A DNA stretch of 44,138 nt from an uncultured Spartobacteria bacterium (GTDB lineage Bacteria > Verrucomicrobiota > Verrucomicrobiia > Chthoniobacterales > Terrimicrobiaceae). Position numbers and translations under genes: made by a program. The stretch's first letter is position 1. Every line of letters starts with the position of its first letter. Below, piece after piece: positions 4,354 through 44,138 of the stretch. Where the stretch lies: NCBI GenBank assembly GCA_937919825.1, contig CALFPA010000015.1:1-44138 (forward strand), given 5' to 3'. The notes below the pieces were generated by a model. It was not told where the DNA came from. It saw only the letters and a program-made list of their open reading frames with translations, and made no database searches.

Positions 4354-6329
4354 GAGTTTTTTTGCTGAGCACACCACTCGCACCAAGCTTGGCGGAGGGA
4401 GGACTCGAATTGAGCGGCTTGCCCAGCGTGGTCGAGAAGCGGGCTTTTTGAGACATCTTCACGAAGGCTGTGGCGGAGGGATTCTCGAAGCGGTCGATCC
4501 TGGGCCAGAGCGACGGCTTTTTCGATGTAGGCTTCGGCGTTTTCGGTTGCCCAGTCCGCATGGCCGACTGCCGATAGCAGAGACAACCCCACGCGCGAGG
4601 CGTGGCGGTCGCCGGCAAGCGTGACCACGGGAACGCCCATCCAGAGGGCCTCGCAGGTCGTCGTGGTGCCGTTGTAGGGAAAGGTGTCGAGGGCAACATC
4701 CACGCGGGAGTAGGCGGCGAGGTGTTCGGCGGGGCTTGCAAAGAAGCCGAGGAGTTCGACTCGGTCGTTGGGAATTCCAGAGGTGGCGAGTTTTTCGCGG
4801 ACGCTGGTTTGCACATCGGCGTCTTCGAGATAGGGGCTTTTGATCAGAAGGCGTGAGTCGGGAACACGCTCCAGAATCCGCGCCCAGACAGCCAAAGTCT
4901 CGCTCGTGACTTTTAAAAAATTGTTGAAGGAGCCAAAGGTAATCGGCGTTGCCTCATCGGGCATCGCTTGCTCCGGGGCATTGGTGGGTGGTTCGTAGGC
5001 CCAGGCGCAGGAGGAAAAACGAACGAGTTTTTCAGTCGCGAAGGCATCGGCTTCTCCTTCAGGGTCGGTGATGCCATCGACAAGACGGTGGCCAATCGCT
5101 GGCAGTCCGGTCGTGTTGGGGTAACCGAGATAGGTCATCAAAACCGGCGCAGGATTTTTTGCAAAAAGCGTCAAGCGGTTCATCGAAGAATGCCCGGCAA
5201 GATCGATCAAAATATCCGGGGCGTCCTTGCGGATCATCTCGAGCGCGGCCTCATCATCGAGGCCGTTGAGATTGATCCATTTTTTGGAAAGAGCGCGGAG
5301 CTCGGAGCTCGTCGAATCCTCGGTGTGATGGCAATGATAGAGAATCGTCTCCACCTGCTCTGGATCAAGGTTTGCAAGGATCGGCTTGAGAAAAAACGCG
5401 ACCGAGTGATAACGAAAATCAGGAGAGACAAAACCGACGCGCAGTTTTTTTTCCGGGTCGGGTGGATTGAAAAAAACTTGAAACTCGTCGGTGGGAAATT
5501 GGGAGCCGAACTCCTTGTGGGCCTCGAAGACGGCTAGTCGGTCTTGGCCGGGGAGATAATTCAGAAGCATATTCCGCGCGCTGAGCACCCGGGCGTTCTG
5601 TGGCTCCATCCAGAGGATCGAATTGTGCAGGTCGAGCGACTCCTCGGTTTTGTAAAGCCGCATGAGGCCGAGCGCTCGTGCCGACGAGGCGCTGGTGAGG
5701 AAGGGGTCGGCCTGCAGTGCCTTGTCGAAACACTCCATGCCCTCGCCCACACGGCCGGACTGCTCGATGAGTGACAGGCCGAGATTGCTCCAAGCCACCG
5801 CCATGGAGGGATCGATTTCCGTGGCCTTCTGAAAGTGCGGCTCGGCCGCCGGAAAGCCCATCACGCGAGCCGTAACTTCGCCTAGTTGCTCGTGCGCCGC
5901 GGCATTCGCGGGTTGAAGCGAAACAAATTTCTCCAGCGCCGCCACGGCCTCCTTCGCCTGGCCAGTGGCCCGAAGGCAGCGCGCGAGGTTTTCCCAAGCC
6001 TCGGCTTGGTGGGGAGCTTTCTTCAGTGCTCGCGACAAATGCGGTTCCGCTTCGGCGAAGCGACCAAGATCCGCCAAGGCCATCCCGAGGAACATCCGAC
6101 ATTCGATGGAGTCCGGCTTAATCTTCCGAGCCTTCTCAAGCAGCTCCGCCGCCTTTTCCAAATGCCCACCGCGCTGGAACGCCATTGCTCCTGAGAGAAA
6201 CCACGCATCAAAATCTCTCGGGCACTCGGCCCTCACCCGCGCGTAAATTTTCTCTGCCTCGTCATGGCGGAGAGCCCTGTGAAGCGCCAGCGCCTCCTCG
6301 AGTTGATTGGTGCGTTGCTTTTGATTCAT
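4350..6329 (-). CDS. TPR protein with GT41 (SPINDLY/OGT-like) glycosyltransferase domain
   Basis: 659 residues. Residues 1-290 are tandem tetratricopeptide repeats (for example AVAWSNLGLSLIEQSGRVGE). From about 294 to 650 follows a GT41 catalytic domain: LRVGFVSPDFRYHSVAFF, LIDLAGHSSMNRL, YLGYPNTTGLP, FGSFNNFLKVTSETLAVWA and DTFPYNGTTTTCEALWMGVP. The HSVAFF motif is closer to SPINDLY-type fucosyltransferases than to the HPxxH of OGT, and the lysine of FNNFLK aligns with the nucleotide-sugar-binding lysine of OGT. Such soluble enzymes glycosylate Ser/Thr of proteins. Its tail-to-tail position with the lectin flagellin makes flagellin the likely acceptor; the donor sugar is unknown. Confidence 0.9.
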   Translation of the reverse strand: MNQKQRTNQLEEALALHRALRHDEAEKIYARVRAECPRDFDAWFLSGAMAFQRGGHLEKAAELLEKARKIKPDSIECRMFLGMALADLGRFAEAEPHLSRALKKAPHQAEAWENLARCLRATGQAKEAVAALEKFVSLQPANAAAHEQLGEVTARVMGFPAAEPHFQKATEIDPSMAVAWSNLGLSLIEQSGRVGEGMECFDKALQADPFLTSASSARALGLMRLYKTEESLDLHNSILWMEPQNARVLSARNMLLNYLPGQDRLAVFEAHKEFGSQFPTDEFQVFFNPPDPEKKLRVGFVSPDFRYHSVAFFLKPILANLDPEQVETILYHCHHTEDSTSSELRALSKKWINLNGLDDEAALEMIRKDAPDILIDLAGHSSMNRLTLFAKNPAPVLMTYLGYPNTTGLPAIGHRLVDGITDPEGEADAFATEKLVRFSSCAWAYEPPTNAPEQAMPDEATPITFGSFNNFLKVTSETLAVWARILERVPDSRLLIKSPYLEDADVQTSVREKLATSGIPNDRVELLGFFASPAEHLAAYSRVDVALDTFPYNGTTTTCEALWMGVPVVTLAGDRHASRVGLSLLSAVGHADWATENAEAYIEKAVALAQDRPLRESLRHSLREDVSKSPLLDHAGQAAQFESSLRQAWCEWCAQQKNS

Positions 6330-8627: not shown

Positions 8628-8808
8628 AGATTCCAACAAGCTTGCTGGGTTCATTCCGTTTCTTGTCGCCAATCCTACGGTCGAAGAGCTCGACCAGTGG
8701 ATCATAGCCATGGGCGGCAGGGAGCTGACCCCAAAAGAAGCCAAAGAGTGGAATCGGAAAGTGCACTGGAGTCCGGTTCCCGGAGAAAAAATGCCGCTCG
8801 AAACATGA
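8593..8808 (+). CDS. Uncharacterised 71-residue protein
   Basis: Encodes a small soluble protein (PFLVANPTVEELDQWIIAMG, LTPKEAKEWNRKVHW). The ATG at 8593 is preferred over one at 8533 because it fits the overlap with the upstream frame 8412-8627, whose stop lies at 8625-8627. No family is recognised. Position directly after a TA-like fragment suggests an antitoxin or DNA-binding partner, but this is inference only. Confidence 0.45.
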   Translation: MTKSKNNFSPTEDSNKLAGFIPFLVANPTVEELDQWIIAMGGRELTPKEAKEWNRKVHWSPVPGEKMPLET

Positions 8809-8854
8809 TATTTCGGAATAAACAAAAGAACTGACATTTTTCTCTGATCTTAAA

Positions 8855-8956
8855 ATGAGGCTTGATTCCCAAAAAATTCAAACCGTGCGGACTGCGGTGG
8901 AGACGATTGTTGGCAACGGTTCCGAAATCCGGGTTTTTGGTTTGGGGAGATTATGA
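8855..8956 (+). pseudogene. Relic of a nucleotidyltransferase N-terminus
   Basis: Thirty-three codons from ATG to TGA read like the N-terminal helix and first strand of an MNT protein (IQTVRTAVETIVGNG, then EIRVFGLG where the family has VRLFGSR). The frame then stops, and the catalytic GSR and DxD residues are absent. This would be the third MNT-derived sequence in the insert besides the two intact copies. The match is short, so confidence is modest. Confidence 0.4.
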
Positions 8957-8959
8957 ATT

Positions 8960-9166
8960 GTGTTTTCCTGTGAAGGATCTTTACGCAAATCAGATTTCGC
9001 ACAGCAGGGCGGATTTGATAGCGGCTTACCAGGTTCGCCAAGAACGGATCGCGAATTACTGATGACTATGAAACAAATGCTGCTGGATATGAGATTCCAA
9101 CCCATCACAGAGGAGATGCGAAACCGCTTGATCGCTGCAGGACTTTATGGAATTCCTAAAGAATGA
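8960..9166 (+). CDS. Small open frame of unknown function
   Basis: A 68-codon frame whose stop overlaps the next gene as ATGA. Only the last 34 residues, from an ATG at 9062 (MKQMLLDMRFQPITEEMRNR, then LIAAGLYGIPKE), look protein-like; the first half is low in typical features and lies over another open frame. It may be a short gene starting at 9062 or the tail of a decayed one. The ATGA overlap is the main support for translation. Confidence 0.3.
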   Translation: MFSCEGSLRKSDFAQQGGFDSGLPGSPRTDRELLMTMKQMLLDMRFQPITEEMRNRLIAAGLYGIPKE

Positions 9167-9363
9167 CTTTAGAACCTTTGCACCCCATCCAACTGCAGCG
9201 CTTCCGGGAAATGACATTTGCCGAAAAGTGGGCTGTTGCCAAGGGGCTTTGGAAAATCGCTTGGGAAGCCAGGGTTAGGGCCATGCGCAGATTACACCCC
9301 CATCTTTCTGACGAAGAATGCCGCCAACTGGCAGCCAGAGAAATCGCCCGTGCAAGAACCTGA
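9163..9363 (+). CDS. Small partner protein of a nucleotidyltransferase gene
   Basis: 66 residues with the pattern EMTFAEKWAVAKGLWKIAWE, then RLHPHLSDEECRQLAAREI. Small proteins with this RarHPxxSxEExxR ending commonly precede nucleotidyltransferase-fold genes in many bacteria. It starts in ATGA overlap with the frame upstream and overlaps the nucleotidyltransferase by 14 bases, so the two are translationally coupled. Function is unknown; an antitoxin-like role is a guess from layout. Confidence 0.6.
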   Translation: MTLEPLHPIQLQRFREMTFAEKWAVAKGLWKIAWEARVRAMRRLHPHLSDEECRQLAAREIARART

Positions 9364-9907
9364 CCTGATTTCCCTCTTCGTTCGACCTCTTGAAAAAGCC
9401 AGAATGCGCTATCTGGTAGCAGGTTCTGTAGGTGCCATGCATTACAGCGAACCGCGGCTCACGCTGGATGTGGACATTCCAATTCTGGTCATGCCCAAAG
9501 AAATTCAGACATTGACATCCCTTTTTCCAGACCCCGAATATTATTGTCCGCCCGCCGACCTCATCGCTTCTGAAATCGCCAGAGACTGCCGAGGGCACTT
9601 CAATGTCATCCACATCCCCACCGGCCTCAAAGCCGACTTCTACCCCGGAAACCGGGACGCCACTCTGTCTTGGGGGTGGAGGCACAAACTCATCGAACAA
9701 ACCTCAGAGGGGCCAATCAACATCGCTTCCCCAGAATACATTATCCTGTGGAAGTTGATTTTTTACAAAGAAGGCCGCAGCGAAAAACACCTCCGCGACA
9801 TCCAAAGAATGCTTGAAACCCAGACTGAGTTGAAGAACATCAAGGAGCTCGAGGAGTTCATCAGAGACCATTCCCTGAATGACATCTGGAAAGGCTTTGC
9901 AAAATGA
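9350..9907 (+). CDS. Nucleotidyltransferase-fold protein (DUF6036/AbiEii-like)
   Basis: 185 residues from a GTG at 9350. The start is chosen because the preceding 44 in-frame codons overlap the upstream gene out of phase and look non-coding. MRYLVAGSVGAMHYSEPRLT followed by LDVDI is the nucleotidyltransferase entry motif (gGxA, then the acidic pair in strand 3), as in AbiEii-like and DUF6036 proteins. The C-terminus is helical (EYIILWKLIFYKEGRSEKHL). The Ser in place of the usual Gly in the GG motif is slightly unusual. Coupled to the small genes on both sides. Confidence 0.65.
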   Translation: MQEPDLISLFVRPLEKARMRYLVAGSVGAMHYSEPRLTLDVDIPILVMPKEIQTLTSLFPDPEYYCPPADLIASEIARDCRGHFNVIHIPTGLKADFYPGNRDATLSWGWRHKLIEQTSEGPINIASPEYIILWKLIFYKEGRSEKHLRDIQRMLETQTELKNIKELEEFIRDHSLNDIWKGFAK

Positions 9908-10188
9908 AAGCCGTCATTCTCGCCAGCGGAGTCTCGAGGCCTCGCAAACCGGAAAAATCGAGTATGGGATTCGCTGAAAATTTTGAAGTTTTGCAGATTA
10001 GGCAACGACTTCTTGCCTGGAACAACCGTGAGCATCCCTACATGCAACGATTTCTCACGAGCCAGAAACTGATCGAAGGAGTTCCTGTTCAGCAAATAAA
10101 TGATTATGAGTTTGATAAAACATTTCGAAAACGAAACCTCAGCCTGCGGGCCGTTACAAGGAAATCTCCTAGTCCCCTGATGCATTAA
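9904..10188 (+). CDS. Uncharacterised 94-residue protein at the end of the TA chain
   Basis: Starts in ATGA overlap with the nucleotidyltransferase. Residues 32-55 (RQRLLAWNNREHPYMQRFLT) share a motif with the 61-residue protein at 7839-8024, also as DNA, so a related element follows two different nucleotidyltransferase modules. The N-terminus (MKAVILASGVSRPRKPEKSS) recalls the start of a nucleotidyltransferase but is too short for one. No function can be assigned. Confidence 0.45.
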   Translation: MKAVILASGVSRPRKPEKSSMGFAENFEVLQIRQRLLAWNNREHPYMQRFLTSQKLIEGVPVQQINDYEFDKTFRKRNLSLRAVTRKSPSPLMH

Positions 10189-10268
10189 ATGAAATAATAA
10201 GACGATAAACTAATTATTGTAAATAATTTATATATAAAACTAAAACTTAATTTAAATTCAAATAATCC
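10189..10268 (+). other. A+T-rich leader before the sugar-modification operon
   Basis: Eighty bases of almost pure A/T with TATATATAA-like runs separate the TA insert from the FkbM gene. This is the only non-overlapping gap before five closely spaced genes and is the likely promoter region, but no clear -35/-10 pair or sigma-28 box is visible, and no Shine-Dalgarno precedes ATG 10269. Confidence 0.4.
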
Positions 10269-10952
10269 ATGCTTCCTAACCTTGCTCCTTATCTCCAAGC
10301 TCAATTTTTTCAGTGCATAAAAAACCTTGGATTCAATCCTCAACACATTGTCGATGTCGGAGCGAATCGGGGAACTTGGACGCGTAATGCATTCCAGTAT
10401 TTTCCGGATGCTTATTTCTCGATGTTTGAGCCTCAAGCTTATCTATCGGCGAGTTTCTCCGATTTACTCAAAAATCCAAAAATTAAGTTCTATGCCAAGG
10501 GAGCTGGCCCGTGCTCGGGAATGATGAATCTCACCACATCCGACCGGAACGATAGTTTCAGTTTTTCATTTTCCAAGGAAGAGGCGCAGGCTCGAGGAAG
10601 AACACAAGTTAAAGCCCCAGTTGTTGCGCTTGATGAGTTTATGCCATCATTGGCCCTGCCTACACCCGATCTTGTCAAAATTGATGCAGAGGGTTGGGAT
10701 TTGGAGGTTCTAAAAGGTGCTAAGAACACTATTGGCAATGCGCAAGTAGTTTTATTAGAGGCTGCAGTTATGTCCAAAGCCTTCAAGAATACGGTGGATA
10801 AAACAACTGGAGCTATGGCTGAATTAGGATTCAGTGTTTTTGATATCACGGATCTTAACCGAACGCAAAAACACAACGCCCTCTGGCTTATAGAATTGGC
10901 TTTCGTAAAAACTGACGGGCTGCTGGATTGCAAGGTGGATTCGTTTGCGTGA
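10269..10952 (+). CDS. FkbM-family SAM-dependent methyltransferase
   Basis: 227 residues. Residues 28-35 are the SAM-binding motif VDVGANRG; the family's second block, LVKIDAEGWDLEVLKGA, is near residue 137. FkbM proteins O-methylate sugars and polyketides. It opens the sugar-modification cluster (WbqC-like, sulfotransferase, aminotransferase, glycosyltransferase) and lies between flagellin genes, so methylation of a flagellin glycan is the simplest role. The A+T-rich composition matches the next two genes and differs from the housekeeping part of the window. Confidence 0.9.
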   Translation: MLPNLAPYLQAQFFQCIKNLGFNPQHIVDVGANRGTWTRNAFQYFPDAYFSMFEPQAYLSASFSDLLKNPKIKFYAKGAGPCSGMMNLTTSDRNDSFSFSFSKEEAQARGRTQVKAPVVALDEFMPSLALPTPDLVKIDAEGWDLEVLKGAKNTIGNAQVVLLEAAVMSKAFKNTVDKTTGAMAELGFSVFDITDLNRTQKHNALWLIELAFVKTDGLLDCKVDSFA

Positions 10953-11010
10953 TTGCATTATCGATTTGTTATGTTCATTTCCGCCTGAATTTTGGTAGCG
11001 GTGCACTCCG

Positions 11011-11700
11011 ATGAAAATCGCCATCATGCAACCTTATTTCCTGCCATATATAGGCTATTTTCAGCTCATGGCAGCAGTGGATGTTTTTGTCATTTTGGAT
11101 GAGGTCAATTTCATAAAAGGTGGTTGGATCAACCGAAATCGAATTTGGAATGGCAGGGAAGCGATGTGGTTGACATTGCCGCTGGTCGGCGCGAGTTCGA
11201 ACAAACTGATCAGTCAGGTGCAAATTCAAAACGATAATGGCTGGAAGCGAAAAATGCTTCAAACTGTGAGTCAAAGTTATGCCAAAGCACCGGAGGCGAA
11301 ACAAACTGTTGCCTTTTTTTCGAGAATCTTGTCCTACTCAAATGGCGATTTAGTCTCTTGCATCACAAAATCCCTTTGTGAACTACAAAGCCTCTTGCAT
11401 TTACCTTGTAGAATCATTCCTACAAGCAAAGGGTTGTCCAAAACCGACAGCACTGGAGTTGACCGAGTAATTGATATTTGCAGAAATCTTGGCGCTGATG
11501 AATATTGGAACCTACCAGGAGGAAAAGATTTATATCTAGTTGATGATTTCAATGCTCATGATATCTCTCTCAAGTTTTTAGAATGCCAAATGCCTTCCTT
11601 GGGAGTGGCATTGTCAGGAACCGAAAAATTGTCGATCCTTCACCTCATGATGAATTTGCCAATCGAAGAGTTGCAAAAAGTAATAGCTTGTTGCCGATGA
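11011..11700 (+). CDS. WbqC-like protein
   Basis: 229 residues with the family opening MKIAIMQPYFLPYIGYFQLM, then DEVNFIKGGWINRNRI. WbqC proteins occur in O-antigen and flagellar sugar clusters and are thought to act in aminosugar N-acylation, though the chemistry is not firmly established. The stop overlaps the sulfotransferase start as ATGA, and an aminotransferase follows, so a role on an amino sugar fits the context. Confidence 0.88.
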   Translation: MKIAIMQPYFLPYIGYFQLMAAVDVFVILDEVNFIKGGWINRNRIWNGREAMWLTLPLVGASSNKLISQVQIQNDNGWKRKMLQTVSQSYAKAPEAKQTVAFFSRILSYSNGDLVSCITKSLCELQSLLHLPCRIIPTSKGLSKTDSTGVDRVIDICRNLGADEYWNLPGGKDLYLVDDFNAHDISLKFLECQMPSLGVALSGTEKLSILHLMMNLPIEELQKVIACCR

Positions 11701-12509
11701 GAAGAATCGCTCTTCATGGCGCCCCGCGATCCGGGACAACTTGGCTTGGTGAAATTATCAATAGCTCACCACATGTTGTCTATAAATTTCAGCCACTCTT
11801 TTCTTATAGTCTTAAAAACTTTCTTGGAACCAACTCCTCAACTCAACGAGTCGATGAATTTTTTAAACTCCTGATACAAAGCAATGATCCATTTTGCGAT
11901 CAATCAGAAACCCGGCAGAGCGGTGAGTTGCCTCATTTCAACAAAGTTGCAGACCCATCTATTGTTGCCTACAAAGAAGTTCGCTATCACAATATTCTGC
12001 ATAACTTGGCCAGAACAGACCCTTCGCTCAAATTCATCTTTTTGATCCGAGACCCCGCTGAAGTCTTGGCATCTTGGTATCATGCGCCCAGGGAGTTTCG
12101 CAGAGATCTTGGATGGAACTTTATAGACGAGTGGCGGTATGCCCTGAAGAAAAATCAAAATCTGCCTGAAAATTATTTTGGTTTTGAAAAATGGAAAGAA
12201 AGCGCTCTTATATTTCTTGAATTGCAATCAACAATACCTCAAAGAGTTAAAGTTCTGCATTACGCAGAGTTCAGGAGAAATCTTTGCTCCCAGACCCAAA
12301 ATCTCTTTGATTTTATGGATATTGCTCTTGGGCAACAAACGCTTGATTTTCTGGATGCATCAACAAATAAGGATGCCAAATCGGAATATGGTGTTTATCG
12401 GATTCAAACAAGCCGGTCAAATTTTTTGAGAGAAAATTTCCCCTCCGTCTGGAAAGAAATACATAATGAACTCAAGGGGACTCCACTGGAGAGATTTCTA
12501 AAACCATGA
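11697..12509 (+). CDS. Sulfotransferase (PAPS-dependent)
   Basis: 270 residues from the ATG at 11697, which overlaps the WbqC-like stop as ATGA; a longer in-frame opening to 11583 lies over WbqC coding sequence and is not used. Residues 7-16 (HGAPRSGTTW) are the 5'-phosphosulfate loop for PAPS, and FLIRDPAEVLASWYH near residue 115 is the 3'-phosphate-binding block. The enzyme would sulfate a sugar or protein hydroxyl. It overlaps the aminotransferase gene by ATGA. Sulfation of a flagellin glycan is inferred from the location. Confidence 0.88.
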   Translation: MRRIALHGAPRSGTTWLGEIINSSPHVVYKFQPLFSYSLKNFLGTNSSTQRVDEFFKLLIQSNDPFCDQSETRQSGELPHFNKVADPSIVAYKEVRYHNILHNLARTDPSLKFIFLIRDPAEVLASWYHAPREFRRDLGWNFIDEWRYALKKNQNLPENYFGFEKWKESALIFLELQSTIPQRVKVLHYAEFRRNLCSQTQNLFDFMDIALGQQTLDFLDASTNKDAKSEYGVYRIQTSRSNFLRENFPSVWKEIHNELKGTPLERFLKP

Positions 12510-13630
12510 TGACCTCAAATCCGATTTATGTTGGCAGTCCCAATATTGGCAATCGAGCGGCATTTATAAATCGAGTCACTGAAATTCTTGATAATAGAAG
12601 GTTTTCTAACAATGGTCCTCTGGTTCAACATTTTGAAAAACGAATCGCCGAATTTCTCGGTGTCAATCACTGCGTGGCGATGTGCAATGCGACGGTGGCT
12701 TTGGAAATCGCGAGCCGGGCGTTGAATTTGCACGGCGAGGTTATCGTGCCAAGCTACACCTTTGTGGCAACGGCACACGCCTTGCAATGGCAGGAAATCA
12801 CGCCGGTTTTTTGCGATATGGATCCGGCGACGCACAACATCGATCCGGCCAAGATCGAGAGACTCATTACGCCTAAAACGACAGGAATTCTCGGCGTTCA
12901 CGTATGGGGGAGGGGCTGCGACACGGAAGCAATCGACGAGATTGCGTCGCGTCGAAACCTGAAGGTCATGTATGACGCCTCGCACGGCTTCGCGTGTTCG
13001 AAGGGCGGAAAAATGCTGGGAACTTTTGGCGAATGCGAGGTCTTCAGCTTCCATGCCACGAAGTTCCTGAATTGCTTTGAGGGCGGCGCGGTGGTGACGA
13101 ACAATGACGAATTGGCCGAAAAAATGCGGCTCATGCGGAATTTTGGGTTCCAAGGATTCGACAATGTCATTTATCTCGGAGTGAACGGCAAGATGAGCGA
13201 GGTGCACGCAGCCATGGGACTTACGAATTTGGAGGCGGTTGAAGAAATCATCACGGTGAACCGCCGCAACTATGAGTCGTATCGTGCCGGATTGGCCGAT
13301 GTGCCGGGAATTTCCGTGATCGACTATGATCCCGCCGAGCGGAATAATTATCAATATGTTGTGATCGAGGTGAATTCCGAATCCTGCCCTCGCAATCGCG
13401 ATGAAATCGTGGAGGCTCTCCATGCGGAAAACATTATTGCCAGAAAATACTTCTGGCCCGGTTGCCACAAAATGGAGCCTTACAGGTCGCTACAGCCAAA
13501 TGCAGGATTGCTTCTGAAAGAAACCGAGAAAATCTCGTCAAGGGTTATCGTTTTACCAACTGGTCAAACGGTTGAAGTTGAAACAGTCAACTTAATATGT
13601 AATCTCATTCGCCGGTTTTTAAAAAATTGA
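12506..13630 (+). CDS. DegT/DnrJ/EryC1-family sugar aminotransferase
   Basis: 374 residues. PLP-dependent: Lys186 (SFHATKFLNCFEGGA) is the Schiff-base lysine and Asp157 (MYDASHGF) binds the pyridine nitrogen. These enzymes aminate 4-keto (or 3-keto) nucleotide-6-deoxyhexoses to give donors for surface glycans. Partner enzymes that make the keto sugar are not in the window. The middle of the gene (about 12650-13470) is G+C-rich while both ends are A+T-rich, so the gene looks mosaic. It overlaps both neighbours by four bases. Confidence 0.92.
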   Translation: MMTSNPIYVGSPNIGNRAAFINRVTEILDNRRFSNNGPLVQHFEKRIAEFLGVNHCVAMCNATVALEIASRALNLHGEVIVPSYTFVATAHALQWQEITPVFCDMDPATHNIDPAKIERLITPKTTGILGVHVWGRGCDTEAIDEIASRRNLKVMYDASHGFACSKGGKMLGTFGECEVFSFHATKFLNCFEGGAVVTNNDELAEKMRLMRNFGFQGFDNVIYLGVNGKMSEVHAAMGLTNLEAVEEIITVNRRNYESYRAGLADVPGISVIDYDPAERNNYQYVVIEVNSESCPRNRDEIVEALHAENIIARKYFWPGCHKMEPYRSLQPNAGLLLKETEKISSRVIVLPTGQTVEVETVNLICNLIRRFLKN

Positions 13631-40130: not shown

Positions 40131-41171
40131 TTATTTGCCCTTCTTGGCGGGCGCCTTGCCGGTCGGAACCGAGGTGATCGTCTGAAGGATGCGGCTGGCG
40201 ATTTGGTAGGGGTTTCCTTGGGAGTTCGGACGGCGATCCTCCAAGTAGCCTTTCCAGCCGTTGTTCTTGAAGCTGTGCGGAACACGGATCGAGGCACCTC
40301 GGTCTGCGACGCCCCAGGAGAATTTGTCGATGCTCTGGGTTTCGTGGAGACCGGTCAGGCGCATGTGGTTGTCGGGACCATACACGGCGATGTGTTCGTT
40401 TTTGTATTTGTCGAACGCCGCCATGAGCTTGTCGAAGTAGTCCTTGCCGCCGACTTCGCGCATGTATTTCGTGGAGAAATTGGCGTGCATGCCCGAGCCA
40501 TTCCAGTCGGTATTGCCGAGCGGTTTGCAGTGGTATTCGATATCAATGCCGTATTTTTCACAAAGGCGCTGGAGGATGTAGCGGGCGACCCAGACCTCGT
40601 CAGCGGCGCGCTTGGAACCTTTGCCGAAGATTTGAAATTCCCATTGGCCCTTGGCGACCTCGGCGTTGATGCCTTCATGGTTGATGCCGGCGTCGAGGCA
40701 GATGTCGAGGTGCTCCTCAACGATCTGGCGGGCGATGTCGCCAACATTTTTGTAACCGACTCCAGTGTAGTAAGATCCTTGTGGAGCGGGGTATCCATTT
40801 TCCGGGAAGCCGAGGGGGCGTCCGTCTTGATAAAAGAAATACTCCTGCTCGAAGCCGAACCAGGCATTGGGATCATCCAAAATGGTGGCGCGGTCATTCG
40901 ATGGGTGGGGTGTGCCGTCGGGATTGTAAACTTCGCACATGACGAGCGCGCCATTTTTGCGGGTGCTGTCAGGGTAGACGGCCACGGGCACGAGCACGCA
41001 ATCAGAGCTGCCGCCGGGGGCTTGTTGAGTGGAGCTGCCGTCAAATCCCCACTTAGGAAGGGCTTCAAGCTTGGGGAACGAAGCGAAGTCTTTGAGCTGG
41101 GTCTTGCTGCGAAGGTTGCGGACGGGCTCGTAGCCGTCGAGCCAGATGTATTCGAGTTTGTATTTAGCCAT
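40131..41171 (-). CDS. glnA: Glutamine synthetase type II (eukaryote-like)
   Basis: 346 residues, the short GSII form common in eukaryotes and found in some bacteria such as Verrucomicrobiota, Bacteroidota and Streptomyces. It joins ammonia and glutamate with ATP. Blocks: WGFDGSSTQQAPGGSSDCVL, WFGFEQEYFFY (metal-binding Glu in residues 107-110), GINAEVAKGQWEFQI (167-181), NGSGMHANFS and ASIRVPHSF. The C-terminal adenylylation tyrosine loop of the long GSI form is absent, so control is probably transcriptional, through the sigma-54 site upstream. Confidence 0.96.
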   Translation of the reverse strand: MAKYKLEYIWLDGYEPVRNLRSKTQLKDFASFPKLEALPKWGFDGSSTQQAPGGSSDCVLVPVAVYPDSTRKNGALVMCEVYNPDGTPHPSNDRATILDDPNAWFGFEQEYFFYQDGRPLGFPENGYPAPQGSYYTGVGYKNVGDIARQIVEEHLDICLDAGINHEGINAEVAKGQWEFQIFGKGSKRAADEVWVARYILQRLCEKYGIDIEYHCKPLGNTDWNGSGMHANFSTKYMREVGGKDYFDKLMAAFDKYKNEHIAVYGPDNHMRLTGLHETQSIDKFSWGVADRGASIRVPHSFKNNGWKGYLEDRRPNSQGNPYQIASRILQTITSVPTGKAPAKKGK

Positions 41172-41220: not shown

Positions 41221-41265
41221 GATTTGTTTCTTTTTTAGCATTTTTCCATGCGGCGAGGGGTATAC

Positions 41266-41281
41266 TGCAGTTCTCGTGCCA
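41266..41281 (-). promoter_or_regulatory. glnA: Sigma-54 promoter of glnA
   Basis: On the minus strand, TGGCACG-AGAA-CTGCA gives the -24 (GG) and -12 (GC) elements with the exact sigma-54 spacing; only the first T of TTGC differs. It lies about 95 bases before the glnA start. Sigma-54 control of glnA is a classical nitrogen-starvation arrangement. Confidence 0.8.
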
Positions 41282-41302
41282 ATTTTTTCATAGAGGGAAA
41301 AA

Positions 41303-41371
41303 CTGAAACATCCACCGACTGGAAGGTAGGTTGTGGCACGGGTAAGCGTTCGGTGGATCGCATTGTTCGTC
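41303..41371 (-). other. attC-like site after the ParE cassette (degenerate)
   Basis: Starting at the base after the ParE stop, the minus strand reads R'' GACGAAC, an arm ATCCACCGAAC, a 24-base loop, an arm GTCGGTGGAT (one extra A stays unpaired) and GTTTCAG. The R'' core differs at one base from the complement of GTTCGAC, the end of the upstream attC, as expected for this cassette. The R' core is poor and lacks the normal spacer, so this may be a decayed last site. Confidence 0.4.
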
Positions 41372-41671
41372 TTATCTTTGGTTCAGTCGACTGGTTATCC
41401 AGTCAGGGTTTCGTCGGAGATCGCTTACTGCCAAGATTGTATCTTCCTCGGCTTGCGAGGTGTAGAAAATTCCATGAGGAAATACTCTGCTCAAAAGCCT
41501 GTGAAATCCATGAATCTCTCTGTGAAGGCCTGCTGTAACTTTCAGTCCTTCAATGTCAGCACGCAGACACGCGGTAAAGTAATCGCCAAGTCCGAAATCT
41601 TGAGCCTCGTAAAATAGGAAACCGTCATTGAGGTCGCCGATGGCATCCTCTGAAATGAGGATTTTCTTCAT
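41372..41671 (-). CDS. ParE/RelE-family toxin
   Basis: 99 residues from ATG 41671, in ATGA overlap with the antitoxin. KILISEDAIGDLNDGFLFYE, then FTACLRADIEGL, FPHGIFYTSQAEEDTILAVS and DLRRNPDWITSRL follow the ParE fold. ParE-type toxins poison gyrase or cut mRNA on the ribosome. Toxin-antitoxin genes are the typical stabilising cargo of chromosomal cassette arrays. Confidence 0.88.
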   Translation of the reverse strand: MKKILISEDAIGDLNDGFLFYEAQDFGLGDYFTACLRADIEGLKVTAGLHREIHGFHRLLSRVFPHGIFYTSQAEEDTILAVSDLRRNPDWITSRLNQR

Positions 41672-41877
41672 CCGCGTCCGATTGCGAACTTCACTTTGTC
41701 CCAATCGAGAAGTTGGGCTTCGCCACGGTTAATCCGTGATCGGCGCTCCTTCAATAAATCGATGACATCTTGGGAAATTGGCGCGTCCTCATAGTGATCA
41801 CGCATATCTTCCCAAATCGCCGCCATAATCCGAACTTTCTCGTCGATCGGTAGGGTCCTGATCTCTTGAGTGGTCAT
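41668..41877 (-). CDS. Addiction-module antitoxin component
   Basis: 69 residues: IRTLPIDEKVRIMAAIWEDM, then DVIDLLKERRSRINRGEAQL and LDWDKVKFAI. This is the putative addiction-module component family that pairs with ParE/RelE toxins. It lies 50 bases after the R' end of an attC site, as the first gene of a cassette would. Confidence 0.88.
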   Translation of the reverse strand: MTTQEIRTLPIDEKVRIMAAIWEDMRDHYEDAPISQDVIDLLKERRSRINRGEAQLLDWDKVKFAIGRG

Positions 41878-41920
41878 GTAGGAATTTTACCCTGAAATTG
41901 CGGGAAGGCGATTTTTTTTT

Positions 41921-41979
41921 GTCGAACGTCAAAGGTGACTCACGCGCGGTAGCGCGTTGAGTCCACTGCCTTGTTATGC
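41921..41979 (-). other. Integron attC recombination site
   Basis: 59 bases. On the minus strand: R'' GCATAAC, then AAGGCAGTGGACTCA and ACGCG, a CTAC loop, CGCGTGAGTCAC, CTTTGAC and R' GTTCGAC. The arms pair as CGCG and GACTCA/TGAGTC, with single unpaired bases on one side, the extrahelical bases that attC uses for strand choice. R'' is the exact complement of GTTATGC, the start of this cassette at 44086. It overlaps the end of the MFS gene, whose last codons (HNKAVDSTRYRA) come from the site. Confidence 0.7.
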
Positions 41980-43253
41980 ATTCTGATTTTGCGGGTGATA
42001 TGGCTAAAAAGCATGCTCGCTCCCAAACCAATAATTGCGAATCCAAAGACCACTAGAAATACGTGTTGATGGCCCAACGGCCCGGGAGAGCTATCCAGCA
42101 AATACCCCATGACAGGCCCCATAAAGACATCGGGAGTGTAGCCTATGACGGATACAAGACCGACTGCGCTGCCGGTAAACGCGACAGGAACATTCCCTTC
42201 CTTCATGATAGCAAAGTAGAGACCGCGCAACGCGAATATCCCAAGACTCGCACAGATGATTGTCATGAGGTAGAATCCAAGCATTCCAGATTGAATCGTG
42301 CCCAAGCCGAGCACGAGGCTTCCGGTCGCAAGGAGCGCAAAACTCACGATCGTCATCAATCCCGCGCTCGTCCGGTCGGCAAGGTATCCGGCAGCGATTG
42401 CGGCAGCGGGCCGCACCCACAAGGAGACCGTGCCAACCTTGGCAGCTTCGACCTCGTCCAAACCCAGAACTTCGCTGGCATACAAGGAAAAGTCATCGGT
42501 AGCTTTAAACCCGACATAGGCGCATATGATAATTAATGACTGAAGCCATACCGTTGGCATTTTAAAAACATGCAGCACGCCTCGGACATTAAAGCTTGAA
42601 AAGCTCGACTGCTCTCTTCGCTCGCGCTTTGGCAAGACAAACCAGACCAGAACTGCCGACGCGCAGGTCATGCCAGCAAACCAGAAAATGACCTGGCGAA
42701 TGGCTGCTGTTCGTTGTTCAAGAGTAGCATTCCCAACATCCTCAGGAATAAGCGCCGCGTAGAGCGCGACCATCACGGTGCCGGTCACGGCCGTGAGCAA
42801 CCCCCTCCCTCCATCCAAGAGTCCAAAGGCAGCGCCTTGTTTCAACTCACCGCCCCACTCGCGAGTCGCTCGCATCAACGCCGCCCAAAACAACGCAATC
42901 GTGGTAAATCCCCAATAGGCATACAGCAATTTCAACGAGGAGAGCGATGGGATCGTTGCCAGAACAAGGCCTCCCAATGCGGTCGTGATCAGCGCCGTGG
43001 CGATGAGTTTGCGCGGCCTAAAAATGTCTGCAATCGGGCCCCCGGGCAAATACACAATCATGGCCACGATCCCATAAAGCGCAAAAGCCGTCCCCAACTC
43101 GAGATTGGTGAGATCAAAGACCTCGAGAAGCGTCGGTCTGAACACCCTGGCCAATACGAAGGGAAGAAAGAAGATCGTCTCTCCTGCTGCGATCAAGCTC
43201 AGCAGGACCAACGATCTGCGGACCCCCGCGCTTCCACGGCTTGGTTTGGTCAC
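41940..43253 (-). CDS. MFS transporter
   Basis: 437 residues with about twelve hydrophobic segments and the MFS loop 2-3 motif (GGPIADIFRPRKLIATALIT). A soluble N-terminal turn precedes the first helix (SLVLLSLIAAGETIFFLPFV). The substrate is unknown. The last dozen residues (MHNKAVDSTRYRA) are encoded by the attC site, so the native C-terminus ends near SHITRKIR. It lies 15 bases after the methyltransferase gene in the same cassette, and they may act together. Confidence 0.9.
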   Translation of the reverse strand: MTKPSRGSAGVRRSLVLLSLIAAGETIFFLPFVLARVFRPTLLEVFDLTNLELGTAFALYGIVAMIVYLPGGPIADIFRPRKLIATALITTALGGLVLATIPSLSSLKLLYAYWGFTTIALFWAALMRATREWGGELKQGAAFGLLDGGRGLLTAVTGTVMVALYAALIPEDVGNATLEQRTAAIRQVIFWFAGMTCASAVLVWFVLPKRERREQSSFSSFNVRGVLHVFKMPTVWLQSLIIICAYVGFKATDDFSLYASEVLGLDEVEAAKVGTVSLWVRPAAAIAAGYLADRTSAGLMTIVSFALLATGSLVLGLGTIQSGMLGFYLMTIICASLGIFALRGLYFAIMKEGNVPVAFTGSAVGLVSVIGYTPDVFMGPVMGYLLDSSPGPLGHQHVFLVVFGFAIIGLGASMLFSHITRKIRMHNKAVDSTRYRA

Positions 43254-43268
43254 CAGAAAGTCCCTCTC

Positions 43269-44042
43269 CTACATATCCAAGGATTTCAGGAAATCATCAG
43301 GAATCGGAGCCACAACCCGGCCGACTAACGCATAATACTTCAACCGAACACCCTCCATCGATAGGCGATGAGTGTAACGCTCAAGCTGATAGATATCGAG
43401 ATACTCCGAAAAAATCAGTTCGCGCACGAATCGCGCAAACCCAGTTTGATCCGACTTGTCTAAAAAAGTCTCCTTGATATTGAAAGCGACCCAGCCGTTG
43501 ACGGCAACCAGGCTCAATGCTTGAAAAAAAGCCGAGGGCGGTATGTCACCAAAGCCGAGCGCTGCGACCGAGGTCAGGCAGTTGAATTTCCAATCCTTGA
43601 GCTCTTCAAGTTGGCCTGCGGACATACTGGTAAAATCAGCCACCAAATAATCGTCATAAACAAAAGGACGATCCCTGTAGGCCGCCTCATGCGCTTCTGG
43701 AAGAATGTCCGCACCCACGATTCGAGACACGCCAATCCTACGCAACTCTTCTGCCATCATGCCATTGCCCGCACCAAGATCCAGCACGCGGAGTTCGCTG
43801 CAAGACTCCAACTCCGAGGATACGCTTCGCTGCAGGAGCTCCACGACTTTTTGCGGCGATTTGCACTTGAGACGATCGTAAAAGAGTTGCTCATACAGCC
43901 CGGGCCTCGAAAAAATCTCGTCGTAATCGTGAAATCGCAGCCTAACAGGCTCGCCATTCTCGAATAAGTAAAAATACGCTTCAGCTTGTGAAAGATCGTG
44001 CTCCTGTTTTGGCGGAAATTGAATGCGATGTAGTTTAGTCAT
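43269..44042 (-). CDS. Class I SAM-dependent methyltransferase
   Basis: 257 residues. LRVLDLGAGNGMMAEELRRI is the SAM-binding motif I, near residue 85; VGADILPEAHEAA is motif II-like and FNCLTSVAALGFGDIPPSAF follows. The N-terminus (FPPKQEHDLSQAEAYFYLFE) and C-terminus do not point to a specific substrate. It starts 44 bases after the R' core of the attC at the window edge, the normal place for the first gene of a cassette. Confidence 0.85.
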   Translation of the reverse strand: MTKLHRIQFPPKQEHDLSQAEAYFYLFENGEPVRLRFHDYDEIFSRPGLYEQLFYDRLKCKSPQKVVELLQRSVSSELESCSELRVLDLGAGNGMMAEELRRIGVSRIVGADILPEAHEAAYRDRPFVYDDYLVADFTSMSAGQLEELKDWKFNCLTSVAALGFGDIPPSAFFQALSLVAVNGWVAFNIKETFLDKSDQTGFARFVRELIFSEYLDIYQLERYTHRLSMEGVRLKYYALVGRVVAPIPDDFLKSLDM

Positions 44043-44079
44043 GAAGTTTTATTGATTCGGCCTGAGGTGGATTCTTTTT

Positions 44080-44138
44080 GCATAACGTAAAAGGTGTGGC
44101 ACGGCGGAGGCTGGACGTCCAGAGCGAAGCGAACGAGA
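44080..44138 (-). other. Right half of an attC site at the window edge
   Basis: On the minus strand the window begins inside a palindromic stretch (TCTGGACGTCCAG), runs through CCTCCGCCGTGCCACACCTT and TTAC, and ends in the core GTTATGC at 44086-44080. This is the same CACCTTTxAC-GTT arrangement as the site at 41921. The left half would lie beyond the window. Confidence 0.55.

What the first reader, a model, noticed from the sequence alone, without database searches (positions are those of the whole stretch)
41303..44138. Integron cassette array (possibly without integrase) next to glnA
The attC at 41921-41979 has short arms, unpaired bases and core sites. The rule of cassette exchange holds: the cassette with methyltransferase and MFS begins with GTTATGC (44086-44080) and its own attC has the exact complement GCATAAC; the ParE cassette begins GTTCGAC and its candidate attC has GACGAAC, one base off. 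TA genes are typical array cargo. Integrons outside Proteobacteria are little described, and the two-gene cassette is large.
Basis: partly seen in the sequence, partly recalled or inferred. Interest (0 to 1): 0.82.

Follow-up and report, generated by a model that had tools for sequence, protein, structure and literature searches.

The report
Tail of a complete chromosomal integron
The end of this stretch of a lake verrucomicrobial genome is the far end of a working-type integron, a known bacterial device for collecting and swapping gene cassettes; its integrase gene lies on another fragment of the same genome, so it is ordinary in kind, though one two-gene cassette also occurs as a plain gene pair in a related species and may show how cassettes are born.

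Summary
A covariance model built only from attC sites of relatives scores 41979-41921(-) at 29.5 bits, the best hit in the whole 2.7-Mb genome. The R''-L'' half of the terminal attC (41371-41297) is the best such match in the window. Cassette-end complementarity holds (7/7 and 6/7 bases). The window is a whole contig that ends inside the next attC. The same genome encodes an integron integrase (355 bits; cut-off 265), cut off at another contig's end. A sister species (GlnA 99%, IntI 97%) has intI, attI, about eight cassettes and glnA on one contig, in the predicted order. The two species' arrays diverge at the G|TT crossover of the window's attC. This is therefore the distal end of a complete sedentary chromosomal integron, ending about 15 bp upstream of a sigma-54-like glnA promoter. 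Integrons in Verrucomicrobiota are already recorded. The least expected point is the 2.16-kb methyltransferase-MFS cassette: the same gene pair sits without attC in a congener, 95.6% identical over exactly start codon to R'', possibly a snapshot of cassette birth.

The parts
44080..44138 (-). 3' half (L' side and R' GTTATGC) of an upstream attC, cut by the contig end
   Evidence: Contig C15 is 44138 bases; CACACCTTTTACGTTATGC parallels GTCACCTTTGACGTTCGAC of the next attC
41927..44085 (-). Gene cassette 1 (2159 bp): methyltransferase + MFS transporter + attC
   Evidence: Starts TTATGC after G at 44086; own R'' GCATAAC pairs 7/7
43269..44042 (-). SAM-dependent methyltransferase, 257 aa
   Evidence: Pfam Methyltransf_23 1.8e-9; found in only 4 of 213 genomes of the order
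41940..43253 (-). MFS transporter, 437 aa; stop codon lies inside the attC
   Evidence: Pfam MFS_1 1e-23; ORF end 41940 within 41921-41979
41921..41979 (-). attC of cassette 1 (59 nt), R'' GCATAAC, R' GTTCGAC; crossover between 41927 and 41926
   Evidence: Covariance model 29.5 bits, best hit of the whole genome; bottom strand folds at z -3.0; arrays of two species diverge here
41303..41926 (-). Gene cassette 2 (624 bp): antitoxin + ParE-like toxin + terminal attC
   Evidence: R'' GACGAAC pairs 6/7 with GTTCGAC; antitoxin part shared with sister species
41668..41877 (-). Antitoxin, 69 aa, Unstab_antitox family
   Evidence: PF09720 1.5e-10
41372..41671 (-). ParE/RelE-like toxin, 99 aa (family not reached by HMM; by partner, position and similarity)
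   Evidence: No direct Pfam/NCBIfam hit; 29% identity, E 2e-6 in a single comparison, with a ParE-like protein of contig C42 that itself scores just below the ParE_toxin cut-off
41297..41371 (-). Terminal attC (75 nt), degenerate R' GTTTTTC joined to the glnA flank
   Evidence: R''-L'' half is the best profile hit of the window, 23.2 bits; 9-bp perfect L''/L'
41265..41282 (-). Sigma-54-like -24/-12 promoter element of glnA (TTGGCACGAGAACTGCAG), first chromosomal feature after the array
   Evidence: Similar TTGGCA-N-TGCT/TGC element upstream of glnA in most of the relatives compared; by consensus only
40131..41171 (-). glnA, GlnII-type glutamine synthetase, chromosomal flank
   Evidence: NCBIfam GlnII 1.8e-112, below that model's cut-off

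Best explanation
The feature is the distal end of a complete sedentary chromosomal integron of a Verrucomicrobiota species. IntI recombines the folded bottom strand of attC with attI (or another attC), so cassettes enter and leave between G and TT. The array runs from intI-attI beside yqeY to glnA; in this draft assembly its middle is missing and the two ends lie on contigs C91 and C15. The window holds the last two cassettes: a methyltransferase-MFS pair and a toxin-antitoxin pair that probably stabilises the array end. Shown: the attC sites, cassette-end complementarity, an integrase gene in the genome, the complete layout in a sister species, and cassette exchange at G|TT. Inferred: physical continuity C91-array-C15, present-day recombination activity, and toxin-antitoxin function.
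For: attC model trained only on relatives: 29.5 bits, top hit of 2.7 Mb. R''-L'' profile: the two proposed sites rank 1 and 2 in the window. Cassette-end complementarity 7/7 and 6/7, as in relatives. Own integrase: TIGR02249 355 bits, cut-off 265, aligned along V. cholerae IntI4 (2a3v, 6e-67) through the insert and the catalytic R/H/Y region. Sister species G003 (JAPLTG010000003.1, Lake Pavin MAG): intI, attI, about 8 attC and glnA on one contig, matching both contig ends of this genome. Arrays of G000 and G003 are 97% identical in the antitoxin cassette and unrelated upstream of G|TT. attI ...GTGTGACCAAACAAC|GTT shared by four species, divergence right after GTT.
Against: No read or graph evidence joins C91 to C15. 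Only 250 codons of intI are on the contig, so its integrity is unknown. The full attC model does not detect the terminal attC. The toxin is not recognised by any HMM library. intI is partial or disrupted in some congeners (G011, G014), so activity here is not assured.
Confidence: 0.95

Rival explanations
1. A CALIN: a cassette array that has lost its integrase and no longer moves.
For: No intI on the window; intI is partial or disrupted in some congeners; a partly decayed array really exists elsewhere in the genome, on C42.
Against: An intI over the family cut-off is in the same genome at a contig end in the right orientation, and the sister species shows the intact layout.
Confidence: 0.04
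2. Ordinary neighbouring genes with terminator-like hairpins that look like attC.
For: Hairpins with AAC/GTT ends are common: a simple motif finder gives dozens of equal hits in the window.
Against: The trained model singles out 41921-41979 in the whole genome; cassette-end complementarity and the species breakpoint fall on the core sites.
Confidence: 0.01

Closest known systems
Sedentary chromosomal integrons (Vibrio superintegron type; recorded in Verrucomicrobiota, PMC8618304)
   Same: Divergent intI, attI, tandem cassettes with attC, toxin-antitoxin cassettes, exchange at G|TT
   Different: Short array (about 7 kb in the sister species); integrases of the clade have an extra N-terminal part of about 150 aa; array ends at a glnA promoter
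CALIN (cluster of attC lacking integrase)
   Same: What this contig alone would be called
   Different: Integrase is in the genome; the appearance comes from the assembly break, as described for draft genomes in PMC9024848
Two-ORF gene cassettes
   Same: Two same-strand genes before one attC
   Different: At 2.16 kb slightly above the roughly 2 kb implied for the largest annotated cassette in PMC8352920

Membership tests
Integron | Integron integrase gene with the IntI-specific insert | tested here: met
   TIGR02249 355 bits over cut-off; aligns with IntI4 2a3v through the insert and catalytic residues; on another contig, 5' end cut
Integron | attI next to intI with G|TT insertion point | tested here: met
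   Conserved up to GTT in G002, G003, G005, G014, divergent after it where sequence continues; in this genome that stretch is not assembled
Integron | attC sites with R''-L''-L'-R', stronger bottom-strand fold | tested here: met
   41921-41979; terminal site only in its R''-L'' half
Integron | Cassette start complementary to its own attC R'' | tested here: met
   7/7 and 6/7
Integron | Cassette turnover between close relatives at the core site | tested here: met
   G000 versus G003 diverge at G|TT of the attC at 41921
Integron | Recombination of attC by IntI in vivo | not testable with these tools
   Needs a cassette excision or insertion assay
CALIN | No integrase associated with the array | tested here: not met
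   Integrase present in the genome; sister species shows linkage

The most novel reading that the evidence does not exclude
The methyltransferase-MFS cassette is a recently born cassette: a plain chromosomal gene pair was joined to an attC at its 3' end, and the attC-less homologue in the congener G011 (95.6% nucleotide identity over window 41977-44042, i.e. start codon to R'') shows both junctions. Capture from start codon to R'' would narrow the possible routes of cassette genesis, which is listed as an open problem (PMC12901181). The reverse (a cassette that lost its attC on moving into the G011 chromosome) is not excluded.
Probability: 0.3. Interest if true: 0.6.

Novelty: new member of a known kind. 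Interest (0 to 1): 0.34.

Why it matters
It turns an apparent integrase-less array into a complete integron in a genus of freshwater Verrucomicrobiota, with attI, attC and exchange point located by comparison between species. Its two-gene cassette has a close attC-less twin in a related species, which makes the origin of a cassette directly examinable.

Tried and rejected
A plain R''/L''/L'/R' motif finder gave dozens of equal hits in the window and was dropped as evidence. An exact RYYYAAC/GTTRRRY pattern search was written in the wrong order and is uninformative. The 20.4-bit model hit on C87 was set aside as coding noise by my reading, not by a database hit. In the whole-genome model search only 150 of about 1150 candidates were scored, and in G003 only 2 of 8 attC were recovered, so it cannot show that no further attC exist; indeed a DNA query found the C42 array. 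AlphaFold of the toxin had pLDDT 39 and was not used. Plasmid searches for the methyltransferase and the antitoxin found nothing. The toxin query found nothing in viral contigs.

Full report
What the window is. The window is the complete contig C15 (44138 bases) of a 2.71-Mb, 143-contig genome that is 99% complete. Its close relative G003 is a Verrucomicrobia MAG from Lake Pavin (JAPLTG010000003.1). The feature therefore runs into a contig end, which matters for the question of the integrase.

The sites. I collected 22 attC from arrays of six related genomes (G002, G003, G025, G048, G051, G056), none from this genome, cut their variable loops to 60 nt and built a covariance model. The named structure has 72% of cells paired against 63% in shuffles and 33-54% when slid. 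The window site 41979-41921(-) scores 29.5 bits, E 2e-5; the next window hit has 13.5 bits. In the whole genome it is again the top hit, E 0.0013; the second, 20.4 bits, lies in what reads as carB coding sequence (my reading, no database hit). Its bottom strand folds at -14.3 kcal/mol, better than all 200 shuffles, and better than the top strand. The terminal site was not found by the model, but a profile of the R''-L'' half alone ranks 41371(-) first (23.2) and 41979(-) second (19.9) of all positions on both strands; the third has 11.8. Its best geometry is 41297-41371: R'' GACGAAC, perfect 9-bp L''/L', R' GTTTTTC. The degenerate R' is what the outer end of an array is expected to look like (general knowledge).

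Cassette ends. Cassette 1 starts GTTATGC and its attC starts GCATAAC (7/7 complementary); cassette 2 starts GTTCGAC and its attC GACGAAC (6/7). Successive sites in G003 give 7,7,7,6,7,6,7, and adjacent collected sites in G048 give 7,7,7,7 (its first value, 4, skips an intervening attC).

The integrase. The genome has a gene scoring 355 bits against the integron integrase model TIGR02249 (cut-off 265) on contig C91, cut off by the contig end, with its 5' end pointing outwards. It aligns with V. cholerae IntI4 through the IntI-specific insert and the catalytic region. In G003 (GlnA 99%, IntI 97% identical) intI is at C29:8090-9634(-) and glnA at C29:16582(+), with about eight attC between. The ends of C91 and C15 align with the two sides of that integron at 92% and 97%. 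The C91-array-C15 layout in this genome is an inference from that synteny; no reads were available.

attI and exchange. Upstream of intI, four species share ...GTGTGACCAAACAAC|GTT and those with further sequence differ right after GTT, which defines attI. The arrays of this genome and G003 are 97% identical through the antitoxin cassette and become unrelated upstream of the core site of the attC at 41921: here the methyltransferase-MFS cassette, there another cassette with a 114-nt attC. That is cassette exchange seen between species. In G003 most of the toxin gene and half of the last attC are deleted, leaving the antitoxin.

Surroundings. Array end and glnA are joined about 15 bp upstream of TTGGCACGAGAACTGCAG, a sigma-54-like element; similar elements precede glnA in most of the relatives compared, while none of those outside the G000/G003 pair shows the array there. 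The yqeY-intI junction was found only in the G000/G003 pair. intI is partial or disrupted in G011 and G014.

The cassettes. The methyltransferase occurs in 4 of 213 genomes of the order and in no other of a 387-genome sample of the phylum. In G011 the pair is 95.6% identical over exactly window 41977-44042, start codon to R'', but sits beside a duplicated dinB-yjbQ stretch with no attC detected; GlnA of the two species is only 83% identical, so the pair moved between species. In G005 and G097 no attC was detected near the pair either. In this genome the MFS frame runs into the attC and stops inside it. Either a plain gene pair acquired an attC, or a cassette lost it. The second cassette holds an Unstab_antitox antitoxin (PF09720) and a toxin that no profile library recognises but that resembles (29%, E 2e-6 for one comparison) a protein of the genome's second array which scores just under the ParE_toxin cut-off.

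Second array. Contig C42:47200-51587 carries about five attC-like sequences, 68-82% identical to an attC of the sister species. One scores 26 bits; in one the R' GTT has become ATT, others keep GTT but have changed or shortened ends; the stretch ends in another antitoxin and a toxin frame with an internal stop. By its flank, read as glmS from the sequence, it is a separate, partly decayed array.

Known context. Integrons are recorded in 14 phyla including Verrucomicrobiota, two-ORF and toxin-antitoxin cassettes are standard (PMC8618304), and draft genomes are known to split integrons into apparent integrase-less arrays (PMC9024848). The finding is therefore a new member of a known kind. The one point that bears on an open question, the molecular genesis of cassettes (named as a gap in PMC12901181), is the methyltransferase-MFS pair.

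Noticed in passing
Contig C42:47200-51587 of the same genome (L196 about 9200-13588): A second, partly decayed cassette array: about five attC-like sequences with altered core sites, ending in an antitoxin and a ParE-like toxin frame with an internal stop.
   Followed up: partly
L063:8090-9634 and L022, L026, L029, L031-L034: Integrases of this and related verrucomicrobial integrons are 450-520 aa, with about 150 extra N-terminal residues; in one case this part weakly matches a second SAM-like core-binding domain. Similar long matches appear in Thiocapsa, Nitrospira and gammaproteobacterial records.
   Followed up: partly
L197 (G011 C4) 4767-5403 and 8641-9277: A 637-bp direct repeat (dinB end-yjbQ, 97.6%) flanks the attC-less methyltransferase-MFS pair together with a hydrolase-like remnant, suggesting an insertion with large duplication.
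   Followed up: partly
window 41940: The MFS stop codon lies inside the attC, so the last residues (NKAVDSTRYRA) are read from the recombination site.
   Followed up: yes
window 41265-41282: Sigma-54-like promoter element of glnA immediately beyond the array end.
   Followed up: partly
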